Of a stretch of DNA of 33,660 bases, positions 1,339-27,000 are shown piece after piece. Source of the stretch: Chrysochromulina tobinii (Eukaryota > Haptophyta > Prymnesiales > Chrysochromulinaceae). A program made the position numbers and the translations under genes. Under the pieces are notes generated by a model. It searched no databases. It was not told where the DNA came from and saw only the letters and a list, made by a program, of their open reading frames with translations. The stretch is from the NCBI GenBank assembly GCA_001275005.1, contig JWZX01003164.1, positions 1 through 33,660 on the forward strand, written 5' to 3'. The first letter of the stretch is position 1. Each line of letters starts with the position of its first letter.

Positions 1339-4195
1339 ATGGAGTTCGACGAGGGCTCCATCTTCTACTCCAATCAGGAGCGCGGCGACGGCGCGCGGGC
1401 GGACACAGAGTCACCGGCGTCGGCGCGGATCAAGTACTTTCAGTTCATCCGCACCTACCGTGAGGGCAACGTGTTCATCTACCGCGACAAGCTCCGGCAG
1501 GCGGTGAGCCTCGGCATCCCGGAGCTCGAGGTGGACCTCGACCACGTGATGGCATGGGACGATGTGCTCGCGGACGACCTGCAGGAGCGCCCGGCCTTCC
1601 ACTTGCCGCACTTTGAGCAGGCAGCGCTCGAGGCGGCCAAGTCGATGGACATCCTTGACCCGGAGGCGCTCGACATGCCCTCGTTCCAGATCACGCTGAT
1701 GTCGACGAAGAAGCGGATCACGATCCGCGAACTGGTCTCGTCGCAGGTGTCGCGCGTAGTCATCATCCCGGGTATCGTCATCTCGTCGTCCAAGGTCAAG
1801 GCCAAGGCCACGAAGATCTTCGCGCAGTGCAAGGGCTGCCAGACAACTACGCAGGTCCCAGTGCGCGCGGGCTTTGGCGGCGCCAACCTGCCGCGCAAGT
1901 GCGCCCAGGTGCGGCAGCCGGGCGAGGCGCCGTGCCCGCTCGACCCGTACGCGATCGTGCCCGAGAAATGCCAGTACGTCGACATGCAGACGTGGAAGCT
2001 GCAAGAGGCGCCCGAGATGGTGCCCACGGGAGAGATGCCGCGCTCAGTCATGCTGTCCGTCGACCGAAACCTTGTGGACAAGGCGATCCCGGGCAACCGC
2101 GTGACGGTGACGGGCATCATGTCGATCATGTCCAACGTGGGCAAGGGCGGGCCGGGGGGCGTCGCAATCCGAACACCCTACCTGCAGGTGCTCGGCGTGC
2201 GCCATGGCTTCGAGTCGCTCGACGTCACGGGCACGTCGCTCTCGGTCTTCACGGCGGCCGAGGAGGAGGCATTCCACGCCCTCGCGCGCGGCGAGGACAT
2301 CTTTACGCGGCTGAGCAACTCGATCGCGCCCTCGATTTACGGGTCGGAGGACGTCAAGAAAGCTCTCGCGTGCTTGCTCTTCGGCGGCGCGCGCAAGGAG
2401 CTCCGAACCTGAAGACGGCCTCTGAGTGCCACTGAGTTACCACTGAGTGCCACTGATTGCCTCCCTCATTGCATGCAGGTGCGCGCAAGGAGCTCTCCGA
2501 TGGCGCCCGCCTGCGAGGCGACATCAACGTGCTGCTGCTGGGCGACCCTTCGGTGGCCAAGTCGCAGTTCCTTAAGTTTGTCGAGAAGGCGGCGCCCATC
2601 TCGGTGTATACCTCGGGGAAAGGCTCCTCCGCCGCCGGCCTGACCGCCACCGTCACGCAAGACTCGGCCAGCCGCGAGTTCTATCTCGAGGGCGGCGCGA
2701 TGGTGCTCGCGGATGGTGGCGTGGTCTGCATCGATGAGTTCGACAAGATGCGCGAGCAAGACCGAGTTGCGATCCACGAGGCCATGGAGCAGCAGACGAT
2801 CTCGATCGCAAAGGCGGGCATCACCACCGTGCTCAACTCGCGCACCTCCGTCCTCGCGGCCGCTAACCCCACGTTCGGCCGGTACGATGCCGAGAAGAAC
2901 GCGGCGGAGCAGGTCGACTTCCAGTCAACGATCCTCTCGCGCTTCGACATGATCTTCATCCTGCGAGACGAGTATGACCTCGAAAAGGATCGGACGCAAC
3001 GGCTGCATGCAAGTGCTCACCACGGCGCCCTCTCCTCCCCACAGGTACGACCTCGAAAAGGATCGGACGCTCGCGGCGCACATCCTGAAGATCCACGTGC
3101 AAGGCACGTCGACGGTACGGGAGCCGGCGGAGGGGGAGCTCGACGTGCTCATCGCCACTGATGACCTCTGAGCGCCCTTGATGGCGTCCCTCATCAGGTA
3201 CGGGAGCCGGTGGAGGGGGAGCTCGACGTGCTGCAGCTCAAGCGCTACATTGCGTACGCGCGCGCCAAATGCTCGCCTCGCCTCAACGAGCAGGTGAGTG
3301 CCACTGAGTGCCACTGAGTACCACTGAGTGCCACTGAGTGCCACATATGGCCACTGATGGCCACTGATTGCATGCTTGCTGCTCGACCTCGCCAAATGCT
3401 CTCCTCGCCTCAACGCGCAGGCGCGCGAGGTGCTGCAAAACTACTACGTGGCGGTGCGCCAGGGGCTCGTCCAGGAAGATGCGGAGGCGGAGCGCCGCGG
3501 ACGCGCGCCACGCGCCGTGCCGATCACGGTGCGCCGGCTGAAGGCGATCGTGTCTGATGGCCTCTGATGACCTCTGATTGCCCTTGATGACGTCCCCTCA
3601 TCAGGTGCGCCAGCTCGAGGCGATCGTGCCTGATGGCCTCTGATGACCTCTGATTGCCCTTGATGACGTCCCCTCATCAGGTGCGCCAGCTCGAGGCGAT
3701 CGTGCCTGATGGCCTCTGATGACCTCTGATTGCCCTTGATGGCGTCCCCTCATCAGGTGCGCCAGCTCGAGGTGATCGTGCCTGATGGCCTCTGATGACC
3801 TCTGATTGCCCTTGATGGCGTCCCCTCATCAGGTGCGCCAGCTCGAGGCGATCGTGCGCATCGCCGAGTCAGTCGCCAAGATGCGCCTGTCGCCGGTGGC
3901 CACCGAGGACGATGTGCAGACGGCGATCCATATGTTCACCGTCTCGACGCTGCGCGCGGCCAAGATGGGCGACATCGAGATCGAGGGCGTGAGCGAAGGT
4001 GCAGAGCGGACAGCTGAAGAGCATATCCGGAAGCGTGTGCAGATCATGATGGCGGTCAACGTCTCCAAATTGCTCGGCGATCTCAACGATCAGGGCATCG
4101 ACCGCGCCGTGGCGCAGCGCGCGCTCAATGCGATGGTGCGACAGGGAGATTTCCAGGAGGTGGCGATGGGCAAGAAGGTCAAGCGCCTGCGGTGA
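1339..4195 (+). CDS. MCM5: DNA replication licensing factor MCM5 (six exons)
   Basis: This is MCM5, a subunit of the MCM2-7 replicative helicase. Deduced exons are 1339-2386, 2479-2971, 3045-3114, 3198-3293, 3421-3528 and 3833-4195. They join in frame into 725 residues, close to the usual length of about 735. The N-terminal domain carries a zinc-binding region (CKGCQ near residue 165, then PRKC and PCPLDPY), followed by HGEMPR-like PTGEMPR and the PGNRVT segment. The AAA+ core has Walker A GDPSVAKS (about 371-378), Walker [10 protein letters not shown], sensor-1 [11 protein letters not shown] and the arginine finger in LSRFDMIF. The C-terminal winged-helix part ends in KKVKRLR. The start at 1339 gives the family-like N-terminus ([11 protein letters not shown]). 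All five introns lie in the second half of the gene and carry duplicated exon sequence; see the intron entries. Intron 1 uses a GC donor. The splice sites are inferred from frame and MCM5 conservation. Confidence 0.95.
2387..2478 (+). other. MCM5 intron 1 (92 bp, GC-AG) with 17-nt duplicated exon start
   Basis: The intron begins GCGCGCGCAAGGAGCTC (2387-2403). The downstream exon begins GTGCGCGCAAGGAGCTC (2479-2495), so 16 of 17 bases match. The only difference turns the donor GT into GC. Joining G at 2386 to GT at 2479 restores the conserved [11 protein letters not shown] reading. The remaining 75 bp (2404-2478) carries repeats of TGAGTGCCAC and ends TTGCATGCAG. Reading straight through gives a stop at 2410-2412. 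Confidence 0.85.
2972..3044 (+). other. MCM5 intron 2 (73 bp, GT-AG) with 26-nt duplicated exon start
   Basis: Bases 2972-2997 repeat the first 26 bases of exon 3 (3045-3070) with one mismatch (GTATGACC against GTACGACC). The rest, 2998-3044, is a 47-bp element containing GCATGCAAGTGCTCACCACG and ending CTCCCCACAG. A close relative of that element lies inside the EF-hand gene at 25397-25507 on the other strand. Splicing gives the expected [16 protein letters not shown]. Confidence 0.9.
3115..3197 (+). other. MCM5 intron 3 (83 bp, GT-AG) with 35-nt duplicated exon start
   Basis: Bases 3115-3149 match the first 35 bases of exon 4 (3198-3232) with one mismatch (position 3128 C, exon T). The other 48 bp (3150-3197) include CTGATGACCTCTGA and end CCCTCATCAG. 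They are closely similar to the non-exonic part of the 76-bp unit in intron 5. Splicing is phase 0 between ACG and GTA. Confidence 0.9.
3294..3420 (+). other. MCM5 intron 4 (127 bp, GT-AG) with 31-nt duplicated exon end
   Basis: Here the duplication is on the other side. The last 31 bases of exon 4 (3263-3293) recur with two mismatches as the last 31 bases of the intron (3390-3420), both ending GCAG. The body starts GTGAGTGCCACTGAG and repeats the TGAGTGCCAC decamer several times, like the element in intron 1. Splicing joins RLNEQ to AREVLQ. Confidence 0.85.
3529..3832 (+). repeat. MCM5 intron 5: four tandem 76-bp units, each with GT start and AG end
   Basis: Units start at 3529, 3605, 3681 and 3757, and exon 6 starts at 3833, so the period is exactly 76 bp. 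Each unit opens with a 24-nt copy of the start of exon 6 (GTGCGCCAGCTCGAGG onward). It continues with 52 nt containing CTCTGATGACCTCTGATTG and ends CCCCTCATCAG. Unit 1 differs from exon 6 at four of 24 bases, while units 2-4 differ at none or one. Each unit could act as a complete GT-AG intron. Removing all four restores the conserved [18 protein letters not shown]. Confidence 0.93.
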
Positions 4196-4795
4196 GTGCG
4201 GGCGCCGTGGCGGGCGCCGGAGCGGCGGCGCGGCCGAGGCGGAACACGGAAGACACAGCCGGAATGGAGGAAGCGTATTTACGGAACGCGGTCTGGCGGG
4301 GCGCCCCCTGCGGTGTGGCCCACGCGGCGAGCGTCGCAGCGCCGGCGGGTTGACCATCTGGTTGACCACGAGGCTTGCCGTGTCCGGACTCCGGCGAGAC
4401 GTAACGCGAGCCCAGTACTGGGTCTCAGTCGGTGCCTCGCCGTCGTGGGGAGGTCGTGGACGATCGTGCGCGCCCGGCGTTGCGGCATCCGTCCACGGCA
4501 CGCCACCCGCCTCATGCCGCGGATACCACAACGATTACTCATGAGTGCATGGATATGTAATTAAACAGGAAAAAACCAAGGGGGCACACAATTTATCAGA
4601 TCATCATTGCGTCGAGAGTCGGAGAGTTCACAGCCGCCGCCGCCGCCGCCACCCTTCCGCATAATGCATTCGCACGGTCGCTTTCCGCTCTTCCGTTCCA
4701 CCACGGCCACCAACTCCTCCTCGTCCTCGTCGTCTACCAAGAGCGCTTCCGCCACCACCGCGCCGCCGCTGGCGCCTGCCCGCGCCGCCGGGCGC
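4196..4795. other. 3' regions between convergent MCM5 and NOP58; no gene seen
   Basis: The stretch separates the stop codons of two convergent genes and should hold both 3' UTRs. Open frames here are short and lack domains. A (GCC)n run lies near 4632-4653. An A-rich spot around 4556-4577 could serve polyadenylation of either gene, but no AATAAA signal is present there. Confidence 0.5.
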
Positions 4796-9577: not shown

Positions 9578-12500
9578 TTAAGTTGTCGAAATGCCATCCG
9601 CATCCCGCTCGGCCGTTAGCTCCTTCCGCTGCTTCTGCGCATCGACCATGCGCATATTTTGCTGCTCCACGATGGCTGGCTCCTCGTCTGCCGTCGCTTG
9701 CAACAATCGCTTCTCCGCCTGCAGCTTCTGCCTCTGGTAGTCTGCTTCAGCCTGGTGCTTTCGCACATTCGCCTGCACTCTCGTGGCGGCATCGTTCTCT
9801 ATTTTGCTATGGTCGGGGTGCACCCCAGCGTCCGTCTTCTCCTCCTGCACCACGGCGGCTGGCTCCTCGTCTGCCGTCGCTTGCAACAATCGCTTCTCCG
9901 CCTGCAGCTTCTGCCTCTGGTAGTCTGCTTCAGCCTGGTGCTTTCGCACATTCGCCTGCACCCCCTCGACGGCGTCGTTCTCCTTCTTGCTCGGGTCCGC
10001 CTTGACCTCTGTATGAGGGAGGGCGGCGGCCACGGAGGGCGAACGACTGGCCTCCAGGCGAACGAATCGCCACTTTGACTTATCCACGACACGCTCCCAG
10101 TATGCGTCGCCATCCCTAGCGATCTGCTCCAGCTGCTCGAGGCGGCCACTGTCCTGAGTCATGTGCTCATTATTGTAGAGCCTGAAAAACTCGAGCTTCG
10201 TACACTGCTTCTCAACAAGCCACGCCGGTGGCACCGTGCCGGTCAATTGGTTGTTGGTAAAATCCACTTTTTCGAGCGCCTGGCAGTTTGCGAGCGTGTC
10301 CGGAATTGCACCGCTCAGCTGATTGTTGTTGAGGAACAATTCCTTTAGCTTCATCAGGCCCGCGTCCTTGTGCAACCGCTTGAGCTCGTCAAGCCGTGCC
10401 TCATCCTCTTTGCCCATCTTGGAGCCGCTATTCTTTGCCTCTTCTTTCCGTTTCGTGAGATCTTTCATCTCCTCCTTCTCCCCGCCCGACAGGCCACCGA
10501 ACCTAGATGGGATGCTGCCCTTCAGCTTGTTGTTGTCCAGACAGAGGCGCTCAAGGTTTTTGAGCTCGCCGAGCTCTGCAGGCAGCTCGCCAGTGAGCTC
10601 GCAGTAGTTGAGGCTCAAGTTTTTGAGCTTCGTCATGAATTTGAAGGCCCTCGGGATCATACCTTTGAGGCTATTATAGCCCAGATGCAGGGTCTCCATT
10701 TCTATACAGGTCGCGAGCTTCTCTGGGAGCGTGCCGTGCAGTCCACGGCCCTTGAGGTTGAGCGTACGCAGCCGGTGGCAATGGAGCTGCTGGTCCCGCC
10801 GGGCGATGAGCAGGTCGTGCAGCGAGCAGTCCTTAAAGTCGTTCATCTTTGTCTGCCGCGTCAAATCCTTGATAGCAGGCCAATGTTTGCCCTTTTCCCC
10901 CTTCCACGTTTTCTGCCATGCAGCCGAATTGCCTGCCAGCGAAAGCTCAAGTAGCGGGCACTCGTCCTTCTGCAGCAGCTCTTGTAGCATTTTTTGCAGC
11001 TTCTCCCGAAGCCCATCGGCGAGCGTTGAGTTGGAGCACTTGAGGTGGAGCACAACGCCCTCACCCGCGCGACGAAGTGCTTGCTCAGTGAGCTTGCCCT
11101 GATGCTCAACCGTCACCGGCTCGAGAGCACCGAGGATGCGCGCTCCCTTGTACAGCACGTGAAGATCGTGCTTGAGGTCAAAGAGTGGCTTGACGTGCAG
11201 CTGCAGCTCGGCGATGATCCAATCCGAATCCTCGAGCTTGAGCCACAGGTTGAGAAGGATGTCGCGGTTCCCACCGGCTTTGATTGCGTCGTAGTCGGGA
11301 TTGATGCGATCCTTGGCGCGGCAGACAATTGCGCGAGACAATTGATCCGAGTCCCCTTGATAGCCATCGTGGTCATCGTCGGTCGAACGTTGCAGCTCGC
11401 CGTCGGCGCCGCTGGTGAGGAAGCTCAAGGCGACAGCCATCGCGTGCAGGGACGGAAAGACAAGGGTGCAACGCACGAGGTCGCAAAGCTTCCTGTAGTT
11501 GCCGGCATATTCTTCAGCAACCTTGGCGCAGCAGCGCGGTACGCCCTTGATTGAAGCCCCCCCCTCGTCTGTCACCTTGTCCTTCGCTTTTGGGCACGTT
11601 TTTTCAACATGCGTCTTAACCGCGTCCATAACCTTCTCGAGCACTGGAACGGCTTTCTTCGCCTTGTGGATCAACGCCAGCAGAGTGTTGAGAGCATCGT
11701 CGGCGCCGGCGCCACTGGGTTGCACCATATCCACCTTGAGCTTGTTCACCTCTTTGCAGCGCACCTTCATGTACTCGAGTGCGTCTTCCGTGATTGCCGG
11801 TGCGCCCTCCTCGATGCGCTGCTTCTCGTCTTTGCGCAGCTTTGCGTACGCTGCGTTGAAACGGAAGACCGACTGGTTGAGGAGCGGCCTGTACTGCGAG
11901 ATCGCGTTGTCACGCCGTTCAGGGTAGCTCTTCTCCATCTTCTCCAAGTCCTTCCTCTTCTCCGAAATTTTCTTCTCGAGCTCTGTGATGTCTTCGTTGT
12001 GATGAGTACGGTCTTGCTCGCGCATCAACTCCGTGCCCATTTCCTTCATCTCCTTGAGCTGATGCGCGAGTTCATTGATGGTGGTCCTCATCCGAGTCTG
12101 CGCGTTGAGCATCGCCGAGCATTCTTCCACGCACAATGCCACAGGCGCAACGGACTTGCTCAGGTTGGACGGATCGAAGTGTTTGAGCAGCGTGTCAGCA
12201 TTCAGAGGGTCGGGTTCCACTTCCTGCTGCTGCTCTTCCACCTTCGGCGGTTGATGTTCACCGTCTCGCGAGGAGGCGTCGGATCCTTTGACTGAGTGCA
12301 AGGCCACCCAAGTCTTGTCCTGAACCGAATGGTCGAAGAGGAACAGCTCGTCTCCTTCCTGGAGCTCCTTTTCGAATTCTTTGTGATGCGATCGGTCCAC
12401 TTGACCCGGAAGGACCTGCCCGTTCGCCGCGTCCGGGAACATGTTGTCAAACTCTTTGCGTACGAAGCCCGCGTTGACATCCCGCCCTGTTTCGAGCGCG

Positions 12501-18064: not shown

Positions 18065-21000
18065 CTAGACCCACGTCGCACGCGGCGCCACATCCGCTGG
18101 TACCCATTCGCATACAAGCTCAACGCCTTCTGGCAGACGCACGGGCTTCATGGCCTTAGTCGGGGGCCTCGGAGGCAAGTGCGGGAGCGGCAGGGGTGTG
18201 AAGGCCGACGGGTGTGAAGGCAGGGCAGCGGCCGCCGAGGCGCTTGCCCGTTCACTTGCCCGTGCCGAGCCGTTGGAGCTGGCTCGCTTGAGCTCGCTTG
18301 AGCTCGCCTGAGCTCGCTTGAGACGTAACCACGCCGGCGCGCTCGCGAGGACGCGCGGGCGCTCGAAGGCGGCCCCTGGCAGCTCGGCGGCAGCGCTGAG
18401 GAGGGCGGGGTAGAGTGCCATCAGCTCGCCGCGTCGCGCTGCCTTGCGTGCCAGCATGGGGCCCTCGGCAGCCCTCGCCACACGCGCCATCCTCGCCGGT
18501 GCTGCCGTCACCGCCTGCCCCTCAGTCGCTGCCCCCTCCGGTGCTGGCATCGCCTCGCGGGCGACCACCTCGTCCTGCGCCAAAGCGTCCTCCTGGGCGC
18601 TCGCGTCCTCCTGGGCACTCGCGTCGTCCTGAGCACTCGCGTCGTCCTGAGCGTCCTCGTGCAGGAGCCGCCTCGCCAGCTCGATCGCGGGCCCAAGGCA
18701 TCCGCCAGGCGCCAAGTGCTCTGCCAGTGCCGCTGGAGCGAGCTCTGTAACTGCCGCGCTGGGCAGTACGAGCCCTGCGATGATCGGCGAGGGTAATGGA
18801 GAGGCACTTGAGCACGGTGCCCGGAGCACGCCTCGAGGTGCACTTGCCGCACTTGGCGCACTTGGCGCCGCTATGCTCAGGCGGACGGTGCCGTCGTCGG
18901 TGCCGACCGGCTGGAGCTGCGCGCTCAGGAAGGCGACAAGCTGGGAGGACCTCGGGGCATGCTCGAAGGGGTACTCCCATGTATAGTCAGGGCACGAGCC
19001 ATCGGCGTACCTGGGAAGTCATCAGAAGTCATCAGGAGTCATCAGGAGTCATCAATAGTCATCAGGAGCCATCAAGAGTCATCAGGAGTCATCAGGAGTC
19101 ATCAGGAGTCATCAGGAGTCATCAGGAGTCATAAAGAGTCATCAAGAGTCATCAGGAGTCATCAGGAGTCATCACGAGCCATCTGCGTACGTCTGCACCG
19201 TCCAAAGCACGCCCCGAAGGAACTCGGCGGCGGGCGCCAGGTCTTCGTCAGACGCGGGTGTGAAGGCAGACGTGGGTGTGAACCCACGCTCCTCCAACGG
19301 CCGCGGCACGGGCGGCTCACAGGCTTGTGCTCCGTGATCTGAGCCGTTGGATCGTTCGATCCGCTCCACCGCCTCCACCGCCTTCACCGCAAAGGCGCCC
19401 AACCGCTTTTGCTCAAGACCCACCCCCACAGAGGCGGCCCGTGCGGCTGATGGCGTCATCCCCTCAGCCGACACGAGCTGGCTAGCAGCTGCGGTCGCCA
19501 CCTTATGGATGTCTTTGAGCACCAGGACCAAGGCGAGTAGCAGCGCACACTCAAAGGTTTTACGGCTCGGCTCGAGCAAGGCGCTCGCTGCAAAGCGCCG
19601 TGAGCGCCGCACGGCGCGGTAGGCTGACCAGCATCGCTCAAAAGTCGCCTCACGCACTTTGGGCAGGTAATCATTGCCCATCAGGCACGAGAGCACGATG
19701 AGGTCGAGCGGTGGAATCGATGGACTCGGGTTCGTCAATGGGTTCGTCATCATCAGTGGACTCGATGGACTCGATGAACTCGATGGAGCGGCTGCATCCG
19801 CCGGGGCGGCGCCCAATACGGCGCTCGAGCCAGCTCTAGCGCCAGCGGCTCCAGCGGCGCGCGCACGGGACGGCCTGGCCGCCGCCCAGCGCGCGTCCGC
19901 GCTGCGGCCGTAAAAGTCCTCAAACTCTTGCTTCGTGTAGCTGCGCCCGTCGGAAGGATCGATGCGCTTCTCGACGCCCACGACGGCGCCAGTGCCCACG
20001 ACGGCGCCGGAGCCCACGATGGCGCCATGGCTGAGCCCGAGGCTCGCGCACAGCGCATCGAGGGAGATGAGCGACGTGGGCTCCGAACTGGAACGTGGTA
20101 GCTCACGTAGCACGGACACCTGCGAACCGTATTGGGCGAGCGCGTGAGAGGAGCCCGACGCAGAAGAGCGGAAGTGGAGCCCATCAGAGAGGCAATCAGA
20201 GGTAATCAGAGGTAATCAGAAGTGGAGCCCATCAGAGGCAATCAGAGGTAATCAGAAGAGGAGCCCATCGGAGGTAATCAGAGGTAATCAGAGGTAATCA
20301 GAAGAGGAGCCCATCAGAGAGGCACTCAATGGTCATCAGAGGCGCGAGATGTCGGCGGATTTGATGAGGGAGGCAATCAAAGGTCATCAGGGGAGAAGTG
20401 GAGCCCATCAGAGGCCGTCGGAGCGAATCCGAGTCCTCACCTGCCAGCTTGGAGAGAGGGTGAGCGCCTGAAGCACGAGGTCGCCGTCCTGGCCTACCAA
20501 CACGACGCTGCTCCTTCGCGCCGCGGACGGCGAGGCTTGCGTGCGCGAGGCGCCGCGCCCAGCCTCGCGAGCATCGCTCGCCCGGCCGCGCTGCTCGCGC
20601 TGTGCGCGCGCTTGCTCGATCTGACGAAGCGCGCCGAGCAACTTGATCTCACCCTCTCCCGCCACATCGGAGCCGGACATCCAAAACGTGAGGCCGCGCG
20701 CTCGGTAGGCCGCGAGCTCGGCACAACAAAAGTAGAGCATCGCGTTCTCGAAGTCGTCCATAAAGCGCGTGCCCGGCGTGATGGCCAGGCTCGAGACGGC
20801 TTGCGCGCCCTTTTTCTTCGACGATGCGGCCTCCTTGTTGAACGTCTTGCGGCGGCGTTTCAGCTGCGTGGCGAGCTTTGCCAGAGGCGCCGGGCCGTCG
20901 ACCGCGAGGAGGACGACCGAGCCCGGCACAACGCGGCGCAGCGTGGAGTGCAATTTCGAATAACACAGCTTGATTGCATCGTCCGAGCTCGTGGCGCGGC

Positions 21001-24013: not shown

Positions 24014-27000
24014 TCACTTGGTCTTAACGGGTGTGGCGGACGCCGGTACCCCAGCGCTCTTCTTGGCCTTGACCGGTGTGGCGGCCGCGGGAGTGCCAGC
24101 GGCTGCACGCCCCCCCCGCGACACGGTCTGCTCGAGCTCACCCACGCGTGCGACCACGCGCGTGAGCTTCAGGTGCAGGCTGCGGTACGTCTCCCACGCG
24201 CGCTTGACAATGGCCTCGTCCATCTCCGCAAAGGGCGCCGGGCCCTTTTTGACGTCGGCGGCGGGCTTGGCGTCCGAGAGCTCTGTGGGGAGTATTTCTC
24301 GCAGCCGGTGCACCGCTGCGTCGACGTCGTCTACCTCCGCGAGGAGCGTGGTGCGCTCCTGCATACAGCCCGCGAGCAGTGCGCCCCTCGGCATGGCAGA
24401 GAGCCCCGAGAGCAGCGCCGAGTCGGGCGCCGAGAGGAGCGCCTTCGTCGCCTCGAGGCAGCTCGTCACGTGCACTTCGGCCTCTTGCCATTCACACTGG
24501 AGCAAGTCGCGCCGCAGCACCTTGCTCGCGTCGTATCGGGCGAGAGCGGGCGGGGGGAGCGAGGGACTCAAGAAGCCCACGGCAGCGCCCCTATTAGGGC
24601 CCATAGAGCGACCCTGCTGCCCCGCGCCCGACACGGCGCTCGAGGACGCGGCGGTGGGAAGCGTGACGCCGAGGAGTCCATGGACCTCCATCACCGTCAC
24701 GAAGAGAGCCGCCGTGATGCCAGGGTCGGCGGGCGTGGACATGCCGGCGGGAGCCGACGACGATGCGTAGGCTGCCGCGAGGGCATCTGCGCTCGCCGCG
24801 GCGCCTGCGCCGCTGCCCTCACGAGCGCCGTCTCGAGCGCGCGTCTCCGCGCTCAGGTCGATGCATTCTCGGAAGGCATGGAAGATGCTTTCCTCGGAGG
24901 CAGTCGGGTGGAGGAGGAGGACAAGTTGAGTGAACTCGTCGAGCGAGATGTGGCCATCGTTGTTCACATCGGTGGCGCCGAAGAGGGTGCTCGCGGCCTC
25001 GCGCAGAGACTCCCGCGCCGCCTCCCAATGATCAATCGTGAGCGCCACGAGCGCATCCACGTCCACGACCAACTTGCCCCTGCGATTGACCGCGAGCGCC
25101 TCGGCCGCCGACACGATGCCCTCGAGCGTCTCGGGATGCACGCTGGTAGTTGGCGCGAAGAGAGTCTTGAGGACCTTGACGGCGGTGGTGCGCAAGCAGA
25201 GCATCTGCATGCCGCCCTCGCCCGAGCCGTCGCCGATGGGCAGCTTCAGCTCCGCCTGCGCCGACGCCGGCATGTGACTGAAGGCCGCGTTGTACTCGGC
25301 GATCGCGGCGTGCATCTCGGCGTACAGGCAGCAGACCACCTCGGCGGTCGCCTCTCGCACGCGGTCGCTCTGAGGGGTGCTGAGCAGCCCGCAGACCTGT
25401 GGGGGAAGGGGTGCAGGCGCCGTGGTGAGCGCGTGCATGCTGGGAGGGGCGCTGAGCCGGCCCACAGGCGCCGTGGTGAGCGCTTGCATGCTGGGAGGGG
25501 CGCAGACCTTGGCAAACGTAGCGCACCGCTGCGCGACCGACGCGTCGTGACGAGCGGACCCGACGCGCGCGTCTCCGCTCGACTGCGGCGGTGTCGACCA
25601 TTCAATCGACGACTGGATGAGAGCGATCAGATTGCGCTCCGCAATCGACCGAAGGCCGTAGGTCTGGAGGCAAAAATCATACGTGAACGAGCTGAGCGGC
25701 TCGGCGGGTGCGCTGCCCTGCTTCTCGAGGTAGATCTGCAGGATGGTGCGCGCGGTGACCCGGGGCGGCCAACGGCCCGCGCGCTGCCCAGAGCGACTCA
25801 GAGCTAACATTCGCTCCATCGGCGAGTCGGCGTGACCCACGGCGCCGGCACGGACGGCGAGCCGCTGCCGACGCTCCTCGATCGCCCGCTCGAGCTCGCC
25901 CGTGCCGTCCGTTTGGGTCGTCGCTTCGCTCAGTTCGGGCCGAACAATGGTCATGTACCCGGAGGGGCCGGCGACGCCATAATTCTCGACCTCCCCCCAT
26001 AAATGGATCAAGCGATGGCAGTTGGTCGCGTTGACCTCGGTGAGCTCCGCGCCCTCCATCGCCTCCTTGAGGAAGACCTCGATGTCGCGCACGCGCTCGC
26101 TCACGCCCGAGGTCGCGTCATCGATCATCTCCTTCCTTCGTTCTCCTTCCTTCTTCTTCTTCGTCGAAGGCGGCGCGGGCGCCGGCGCGCTCCCTTCGGC
26201 GCTCGCTACGGCGCTGCCTTCGGCGCTCGCTACGGCGCTACTAAAGAGTGTCTTTGCCAAAGCGGAGCGGGCTAACGCTCCGCCCCGGCCGCTGCTCAAG
26301 CCGCCGCCGCCACCGCCGCCACCTTCTCCCCCTCTTCCTCCTCCTCCTCCTCCTCCGCTGCCACCACCACCGCTTCCAGCGCCTTCGCCGCGGCCGTTGC
26401 GACCGCCGCTCATCATCTCCAACGTCTGCTGCAGCTGCTGGCGGTAGCGGCGGGCGTCGTCAGCGGAGGCCTGCGCCTTCTTCTCGACATCCCGTAGCAG
26501 CCGGTCGCGCTCATCAAGTCGGCTGTTCAGCAGTGCTACCTGCTTCTCCGCGGCCTCGCGCTGCTGCTGGTGGAATCTCGCCTCGCTATCTGCAAGGTCG
26601 GCTCCATTTTTGGTCGCGGCGTGCGCCTCGCGCTCGCGCGCGAGACGCGCCTCCTGATGCTGTACCGAACGCTTGAAGAGCTGGACGAAGCCCTGAAAGA
26701 GCTGTCCGCACAGTTCCGAGAGCGCCGGCGAGTGCACCGTAAGCTGCACGGCGAGCTCCTGCATGCACAACGTGTATAGCTGGCTCTCCTCAATGAAGCC
26801 CGCGTCGCTGATGCTGCCGCGGGCGCCGTGCTGACGGGAGGCGCGAGCGGTGAGCAAGGCCACCATCTGCCTCAGCTGCTGCACGTCGTGCGAGTGGCCC
26901 GCAAAGAGCCGCTGCCGGCCCTCCGGGCCCTGCTTGCGAGAGAGCGTATCTGAGAGGGCGTGCAGCTTATCGCTCACCGTGAGAGGAAGGATGGGCGTGC

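What the first reader, a model, noticed from the sequence alone, without database searches (positions are those of the whole stretch)
2387..3832. MCM5 introns carry duplicated exon sequence: introner-like elements with long target duplications
Seen in sequence: introns 1, 2, 3 and 5 begin with 17, 26, 35 and 24 nt matching the start of the next exon, with one mismatch in the first three. Intron 4 ends with 31 nt matching the end of the previous exon (two mismatches). The remaining 47-75 bp is not exon-derived, so simple exon duplication does not explain it. An insertion flanked by a target duplication does: the donor comes from the duplicated exon and the acceptor from the element. Introners are known from Micromonas, Aureococcus and other algae, usually with short target duplications. 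Duplications of 17-35 nt in nearly every intron of one gene seem unusual. Long, variable duplications suggest staggered-break repair or template switching rather than a classical transposase (inference).
Basis: partly seen in the sequence, partly recalled or inferred. Interest (0 to 1): 0.92.

Follow-up and report, generated by a model that had tools for sequence, protein, structure and literature searches.

The report
Introns flanked by long exon duplications
In this marine haptophyte alga, small repeated intron pieces that seem to carry only one splice signal have apparently entered genes together with a copied stretch of neighbouring exon that supplies the other signal, which would be an unusual way for new introns to be born.

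Summary
MCM5 (725 aa, six exons) has five introns, each with a 17-35 nt copy of adjacent exon. In introns 1, 2, 3 and 5 the copy supplies the donor; in intron 4 the acceptor. The bodies are not private to MCM5: introns 1, 3, 4 and 5 are of a 10-bp-repeat kind (TGATGACCTC/CCACTGAGTG), intron 2 is a second, non-repetitive cassette (branch-point-like word, pyrimidines, CACAG). Diagnostic pieces have 2,219 and 1,981 genome matches against 0 for reversed-pattern controls. Long flanking exon repeats occur in 24 of 36 sampled family-2 loci (swapped-flank control 7 of 1,260) and 25 of 40 family-1 loci (63 of 1,560). Copy plus body reaches 67 nt in 36 of 37 strict cases. Four relatives' MCM5 frames run through all five sites; two others break at site 2. 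Best reading: introner-like insertion of one-sided intron fragments with re-copying of target exon, filtered by splicing. The chemistry (staggered-break repair, template switching, reverse transcription) is unresolved, and there are no RNA data. New variant of a known kind.

The parts
1339..4195 (+). MCM5 gene, six exons: 1339-2386, 2479-2971, 3045-3114, 3198-3293, 3421-3528, 3833-4195
   Evidence: 725-aa translation; gap-free alignment to P0001 and P0002
2387..2478 (+). intron 1, GC-AG, 92 nt: exon copy 2387-2403 (17 nt) + minisatellite body 2404-2478
2479..2495 (+). exonic counterpart of the intron 1 copy
2972..3044 (+). intron 2, GT-AG, 73 nt: exon copy 2972-2997 (26 nt) + 47-nt family-2 body 2998-3044 (core GCATGCAAGTGCTCACCACGGCGCC, ends CCCCACAG)
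3045..3070 (+). exonic counterpart of the intron 2 copy
3115..3197 (+). intron 3, GT-AG, 83 nt: exon copy 3115-3149 (35 nt) + 48-nt family-1 body 3150-3197 ending CTCATCAG
3198..3232 (+). exonic counterpart of the intron 3 copy
3294..3420 (+). intron 4, GT-AG, 127 nt, mirror type: body 3294-3389 starting GTGAGTG, then exon copy 3390-3420 (31 nt) that supplies the acceptor
3263..3293 (+). exonic counterpart of the intron 4 copy (end of the previous exon)
3529..3832 (+). intron 5, GT-AG, 304 nt: four tandem 76-nt units starting 3529, 3605, 3681, 3757, each 24-nt exon copy + 52-nt family-1 body; AG|GT at each joint
3833..3856 (+). exonic counterpart of the intron 5 copies

Best explanation
SHOWN: the genome holds at least two large families of intron bodies, and about two thirds of the sampled members sit between two copies of an exon stretch (12-44 nt in 36 of 37 strict cases), one copy in the exon and the other in the intron, mostly with the edge of the duplication at AG|G(T). 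A body carries one end of an intron (type a: branch-point-like word, pyrimidines and ...AG; type b: a GT... start), and the exon copy supplies the missing splice site and the missing length. INFERRED: new introns arise when a fragment of an existing intron, truncated at one end, is inserted into an exon by a process that copies some 12-45 nt of the target twice (template switching during replication or break repair, or fill-in of a staggered break). Splicing then filters the products: only a duplication, never a deletion, leaves the mRNA intact; its edge must abut the body's own splice end; and copy plus body must reach about 67-75 nt. Once made, the repeat-body-repeat unit can grow by unequal exchange into arrays, as in MCM5 intron 5, and could also collapse back to the exact empty site.
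For: Families: body motif 10,364 matches, reversed control 1; family-1 3' end 2,219, control 0; family-2 core 1,981, control 0. Duplications beyond swapped-flank controls in both unrelated families, so they go with insertion rather than with minisatellite slippage. Mirror type b: clear in MCM5 intron 4 and three introns of L021. Strict type-a set, n=37: copy 12-62 nt, median 23; total 51-145 nt, 1 below 67 against 7.1 expected when copies and bodies are re-paired, P=1e-4. Family 2: Spearman copy vs rest -0.78, P=2e-4; the filler between copy and core is not decayed exon (33% vs 29% identity, P=0.18). CTCAC 20-31 nt before AG in 33 of 36. Flanks called coding in the element's sense in 62 of 74 (classifier 73% right on pieces of its own training frames). 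After C[CT]TCATCAG the next bases are GT in 16 of 24 sample sites against 5.3% after CAG in general. P0005, P0006, P0007 and P0025 read through all five MCM5 sites. The 17-mer shared by introns 3 and 5 has no other exact match in the assembly, suggesting copying within the gene.
Against: No RNA evidence. No repeat at score >=13 in 12 of 36 family-2 and 15 of 40 family-1 loci, although both samples are exact matches to the diagnostic motif and so lean towards young copies. The length statistics rest on 37 of 76 loci, those whose copy starts at the acceptor boundary; family 1 alone shows no significant copy/body correlation (-0.23, P=0.34). Seven of the 37 lack a GT donor at the expected place (3 GC, 3 GA, 1 GG). 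The automatic count of mirror types (25 tags against 8 on reversed sequence) contains at least three type-b tags on the strand opposite to the element and one locus counted twice. Site 2 of MCM5 is also interrupted in P0016 and P0019, although its copies here differ at only 1 of 26 positions; P0092 leaves homology near site 3. No empty allele of the same species was seen; the one pair of overlapping contigs differs by a 72-nt minisatellite gap and two single-base gaps.
Confidence: 0.6

Rival explanations
1. Retroposition: excised intron RNA is reverse-transcribed into nicked DNA by a LINE-type enzyme (target-primed reverse transcription), giving variable target duplications and 5'-truncated copies.
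For: Type-a bodies have a fixed 3' end and a variable 5' end, with duplications of variable length; elements lie mostly in coding sense; the genome has 26 reverse-transcriptase domain matches, 22 over the cut-off.
Against: Type-b insertions have a fixed 5' end and a truncated 3' end, which 3'-primed copying does not predict; I saw no tail in the loci read by eye; copies reach 30-44 nt, longer than LINE duplications as I recall them (7-20 nt).
Confidence: 0.2
2. A DNA transposon (MITE-like introner) with an unusually long, variable target duplication.
For: Known introners use this splice-site sharing with the target duplication (PMC9860276, passages).
Against: Duplication length varies 12-62 nt; family-2 ends show no inverted repeat (3 of 13 matches); 5' ends are variable; one family is a minisatellite of variable length.
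Confidence: 0.08
3. The introns are older; later tandem duplication of [body+exon edge] put exon copies inside them, and most arrays then lost the first body.
For: Arrays exist: MCM5 intron 5, L014, L023, and 9 of 40 family-2 loci with a second core within 281 bp. Site 2 is shared with relatives.
Against: Four of the five MCM5 introns and 31 of 40 family-2 loci show one body only; the loss step would have to hit exactly the outer body each time; four relatives read through all five MCM5 sites.
Confidence: 0.12

Closest known systems
Introners of Gozashti et al. 2022 (PMC9860276; abstract, sections 15 and 17 and passages read, no supplement)
   Same: Repeated intron families in unrelated genes of marine protists; the target duplication supplies one splice site; type a resembles their Symbiodinium case, type b their Chrysochromulina case
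   Different: The paper gives 3-9 bp target duplications for earlier families and 4 and 8 bp in its examples (4 bp in Chrysochromulina); here 12-44 nt and variable. Their search required similarity to start near both intron ends and dropped low-complexity families, so both families here would probably be missed (inference)
Daphnia introns from staggered break repair (PMC4202315, passages read)
   Different: Daphnia repeats of this kind are 4-12 bp; here the inserts belong to families of about 2,000 or more matches
Tandem genomic duplication of AGGT-containing exon (PMC3443670, passages read)
   Same: Exon duplication with AG|GT at the edge makes a precise intron
   Different: There the intron is duplicated exon; here most of it is not
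Amoebophrya introner elements (PMC7789003, passages read)
   Same: Direct repeats at the borders of invading introns, non-GT donors
   Different: Amoebophrya direct repeats are 3-5 nt, with 8-20 nt inverted repeats; no inverted repeat at the family-2 ends here
Direct repeats near intron borders, Rogers and Bendich 2025 (PMC11782384, abstract and part 1 of Results read)
   Same: Direct repeats near spliceosomal intron borders read as insertion scars
   Different: Their repeats average 11.4 bp at 71-100% similarity; family-1 copies here average 96.6%

Membership tests
Introners | similar introns dispersed in many genes | tested here: met
   matches spread over many contigs
Introners | similarity reaches both intron-exon borders | tested here: not met
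   family 2 reaches only the 3' border; the 5' side is local exon in most loci
Introners | insertion sites empty in relatives | tested here: inconclusive
   all five sites uninterrupted in P0005, P0006, P0007, P0025; site 2 interrupted in P0016 and P0019, P0092 unclear near site 3; that these proteins are unspliced calls is inferred
Introners | removed by splicing | not testable with these tools
   only protein continuity across five junctions
DNA-transposon introners | short target duplication of fixed length | tested here: not met
   12-62 nt, n=37
DNA-transposon introners | terminal inverted repeats | tested here: not met
   family-2 consensus ends match at 3 of 13 positions; family 1 not tested
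LINE/SINE-type retroposition | variable target duplication, fixed 3' end, variable 5' truncation | tested here: inconclusive
   type a fits, type b is the mirror image
Tandem exon duplication introns | intron made of duplicated exon only | tested here: not met
   bodies match genome-wide families, not the exon
Daphnia-type break-repair introns | exon repeats of 4-12 bp at the ends of the insert | tested here: not met
   repeats median 23 nt in the strict set; only one of 37 is as short as 12; repeats shorter than about 12 were below detection

The most novel reading that the evidence does not exclude
A transposase-free way of making introns: mobile 'half-introns' that carry a single splice site spread by re-copying target exon on either side, and splicing itself selects the side, the edge and the minimum length of the duplication because a duplicated exon is the only scar it can erase. 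The same repeats would make each new intron reversible (exact loss) and expandable into arrays with AG|GT dual-use joints.
Probability: 0.4. Interest if true: 0.88.

Novelty: new variant of a known kind. Interest (0 to 1): 0.76.

Why it matters
How new spliceosomal introns are physically made is a long-standing question. Here a genome appears to keep a large number of young introns in which both the inserted piece and the re-copied exon can still be read, so insertion models make different countable predictions: side of the copy, length floor, fixed or truncated end. It also suggests that an introner survey that demands similarity at both borders and drops low-complexity families would overlook a productive class.

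Tried and rejected
Whole-exon or tandem exon duplication was rejected because bodies match genome families, not exon. Filler as decayed exon copy was rejected. An unselective scan for repeat pairs was swamped by protein repeats: 13 tags among 128 pairs against about 5% by chance; it was replaced, which still has 8 control tags against 25. Local copying as a general rule: same-contig bodies slightly more alike, P=0.014, kept as weak; introns 3 and 5 of MCM5 are the only strong case, and a piece of intron 4 (1 exact match, its own, 103 with up to one mismatch) gave no sign of copying with intron 1. Viral contigs: one contig with the family-2 core (L131), which looks like a join of bacterial or phage genes with an algal end (by eye), and none with the family-1 end. 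Script failures: one search stopped part-way, one search stopped by an error and was redone; one search saw only part of the contig overlap and was redone. The ten paper searches listed no paper whose title or shown abstract describes this pattern; most subscription papers are not held. Huff et al. 2016, the branch-point consensus and LINE duplication lengths are recalled, not read.
Full report
What was given. The window is contig C2005 of a 53.15-Mb assembly in 2,253 contigs. The finding claims that the MCM5 introns carry copies of exon sequence and are introner-like with long target duplications.

Gene model. Splicing out 2387-2478, 2972-3044, 3115-3197, 3294-3420 and 3529-3832 gives a complete 725-aa MCM5. 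Introns 1, 3, 4 and 5 contain in-frame stops if read through; intron 2 (73 nt) shifts the frame. P0001 and P0002, from unnamed public sources, align over all 725 residues without a gap. The best named relative is Prymnesium parvum at 67%. Which copy is exonic: at site 5 the downstream copy encodes VRQLEA as in nearly all relatives shown, the upstream copy VRRLKA. At site 4 residues do not decide (RLNE upstream, RLNA downstream; relatives have both E and A there); the upstream copy is taken as exon because GTGAGTG follows it and no AG precedes the downstream copy.

The duplications. Two additions: intron 4 is the mirror image of the others, its body starting GTGAGTG and the exon copy supplying the acceptor; intron 5 is an array of four 76-nt units with AG|GT at each joint.

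The bodies. Introns 3 and 5 end in CTCATCAG after repeats of TGATGACCTC type; introns 1 and 4 hold the CCACTGAGTG variant. The pattern CTGATGACCTCTGATNGCC has 10,364 matches at up to two mismatches in the assembly (several per intron), against 1 for the pattern read backwards; the 3' end GATTGCCTCCCTCATCAGG has 2,219 against 0 at up to one mismatch. Intron 2 belongs to a second, non-repetitive family: GCATGCNNGTGCTCACCACGGCGCC, 1,981 matches against 0 at up to two mismatches, followed by pyrimidines and CCCCACAG. Its CTCAC looks like a branch point (consensus recalled) and lies 20-31 nt before AG in 33 of 36 loci. The family-1 unit, too, repeats CTGAT/CTGAC, a branch-point-like word (recalled), so both bodies look like 3'-splice-site cassettes.

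Genome-wide test of the duplications. (i) In a sample of 20 contigs, first 10 kb of each, 33 minisatellite tracts lay in 10 of 20 loci; 15 of 33 had a flank repeat of score >=13 against 1 of 208 swapped-flank pairs. In 20 loci chosen by body motif it was 11 of 23 tracts against 11 of 174. (ii) Family 2: 40 loci out of the first 55 places listed (others on the same contigs left out); three had no recognisable acceptor and one was a duplicate; of the remaining 36, 24 scored >=13 against 7 of 1,260. (iii) Family 1: 40 loci out of the first 75 places listed (left out: neighbours, loci already held, one contig end, and a few contigs for no recorded reason): 25 of 40 against 63 of 1,560. The places listed were exact matches to the motif, so both samples lean towards well-preserved copies. 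The copy starts within three bases of the acceptor boundary in 17 of 24 family-2 and 20 of 29 family-1 loci that have a repeat at the thresholds used (11 and 12); the rest start elsewhere, some because of arrays or mismatches, some perhaps by chance.

Length rule. In these 37 strict cases the copy is 12-62 nt (median 23; 36 of 37 are 12-44) and copy plus body 51-145 nt; only 1 is below 67, whereas re-pairing copies and bodies at random gives 7.1 (P=1e-4). In family 2 the copy and the remainder are strongly anticorrelated (-0.78, P=2e-4); in family 1 alone the correlation is weak (-0.23, P=0.34). The filler between the copy and the family-2 core is not decayed exon (82 of 248 identical, 33%, against 29% for swapped exons, P=0.18). 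I read this as a minimum intron length: the shorter the body, the longer the exon copy must be.

Both sides. A scan for type a (copy starts at AG|GT, body ends in AG) and type b (copy ends at AG|GT, body starts with GT) on the window, the 20 x 10 kb, the 20 motif loci and one 6.6-kb contig piece gave 25 tagged pairs (11 a, 14 b) against 8 on reversed sequence. At least three of the type-b tags (two at window 20171-20400, one in L043) lie on the strand opposite to the element and are chance, and L047 is tagged twice. Clear type-b cases by eye are MCM5 intron 4, three in one gene of L021, one in L016, one in L047 and two in L129. Fixed donor end with truncated acceptor end therefore exists beside the reverse; their true ratio is not known. 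This is why I do not commit to 3'-primed reverse transcription, although 26 reverse-transcriptase domain matches are present.

Orientation. Sixty-six bases after the acceptor were called coding in the element's own direction in 62 of 74 loci, with a classifier right in 73% of pieces of the long reading frames it was trained on. This fits copies that are mostly or all sense introns.

Age. Family-1 copies are on average 96.6% identical, 8 of 20 exact. Of 21 relatives examined, P0005, P0006, P0007 and P0025 (78-86% identical) run through all five MCM5 sites, and each has a non-homologous end that looks like read-through of an intron elsewhere; if they are unspliced frame calls, which I infer, the five sites are empty there. 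P0016 (88%) passes site 1 but leaves homology exactly at site 2. P0019 leaves it there or a few residues later and resumes with what reads like the next exon in another frame (tail, by eye), as expected of an unspliced intron at site 2. Site 2 is therefore shared, old or hit twice, although its copies here differ at only 1 of 26 positions: unexplained. P0092 (68%) leaves homology near residue 533-539, close to site 3 (residue 537), but also has a frame disturbance before it; its meaning is unclear. Several other relatives end at places where this gene has no intron (for example P0022, P0029, P0048), which may be introns of their own.

Local copying. GCCCTTGATGRCGTCCC occurs exactly only in MCM5 introns 3 and 5 (5 of 5 exact matches; 18 matches with up to one mismatch). 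One body was probably copied from the other. As a general tendency, same-contig bodies are slightly more alike (14.8 against 12.9 of 30, 16 pairs, P=0.014).

Arrays and instability. Nine of 40 family-2 loci have a second core within 281 bp. L014 holds a gene, dehydrogenase-like by my reading of its frames and not searched, with 12 exact copies of a 14-nt exon piece alternating with CTGATTGG repeats. Two overlapping contigs (C101, C235) agree over about 6.6 kb except for a 72-nt gap inside a minisatellite and two single-base gaps in homopolymers, either allelic or an assembly effect.

Mechanism. Shown: copy-body-copy structure, two families, two mirror types, a length floor in the strict set, in-frame removal in MCM5 as a gene model. 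Inferred: insertion of truncated intron fragments with re-copying of target exon, followed by a splicing filter. A deletion at the joint would cost exon sequence; a duplication lies inside the intron and is removed. The filter explains side, edge and length without any enzyme that measures 12-45 nt. What makes the double copy is open.

Comparison. Gozashti et al. 2022 (PMC9860276) mention 3-9 bp target duplications for earlier families and show 4 bp in Symbiodinium and Chrysochromulina (there with the element carrying the donor) and 8 bp in Aureococcus (passages). Their pipeline required similarity beginning within a 15-base region at both borders (section 15) and removed low-complexity families (section 17); the present introns would probably fail one or both. 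Daphnia repeats of this kind are 4-12 bp (PMC4202315, passages). Tandem duplication makes introns of duplicated exon (PMC3443670, passages). Amoebophrya introners have 3-5 nt direct and 8-20 nt inverted repeats (PMC7789003, passages). Hence: works like an introner, not a member of the transposon-type class as tested, a new variant.

Noticed in passing
window 25414-25503 (sense on the minus strand): Two family-2 cores in tandem inside a 1053-aa minus-strand frame: an intron array that an open-frame caller reads through.
   Followed up: partly
window 19017-19163 and 20171-20410 (sense on the minus strand): Two more minisatellite introns with flank repeats in neighbouring genes, while several long frames of the window show none; introns seem clustered in some genes.
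   Followed up: partly
window 9674-9961 (minus-strand 1436-aa frame): An exact 105-bp direct repeat 183 bp apart inside a long reading frame.
   Followed up: no
L014 minus strand, about 2940-2200: Twelve exact copies of a 14-nt exon piece alternating with CTGATTGG repeats, the largest array seen.
   Followed up: partly
MCM5 introns 1, 2 and 4; both families: The palindrome GCATGC recurs in both otherwise unrelated body families; its role is unknown.
   Followed up: no
L102, L104, L108, L096, L087: Some copies would need GC, GG or GA donors, or an in-frame duplication in the mRNA; non-canonical splicing or codon gain is possible.
   Followed up: no
L131 (IMG/VR contig), 4340-4554: A contig filed as viral ends with a family-2 intron, a 10-bp CTGACGAACC repeat and an exon duplication after phage- or bacteria-like genes: probably a chimeric assembly with haptophyte DNA.
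   Followed up: partly
P0017 and P0023 (MCM5 relatives): About 60 gap positions in their alignment to this MCM5, possibly introns of length divisible by three read as protein.
   Followed up: no
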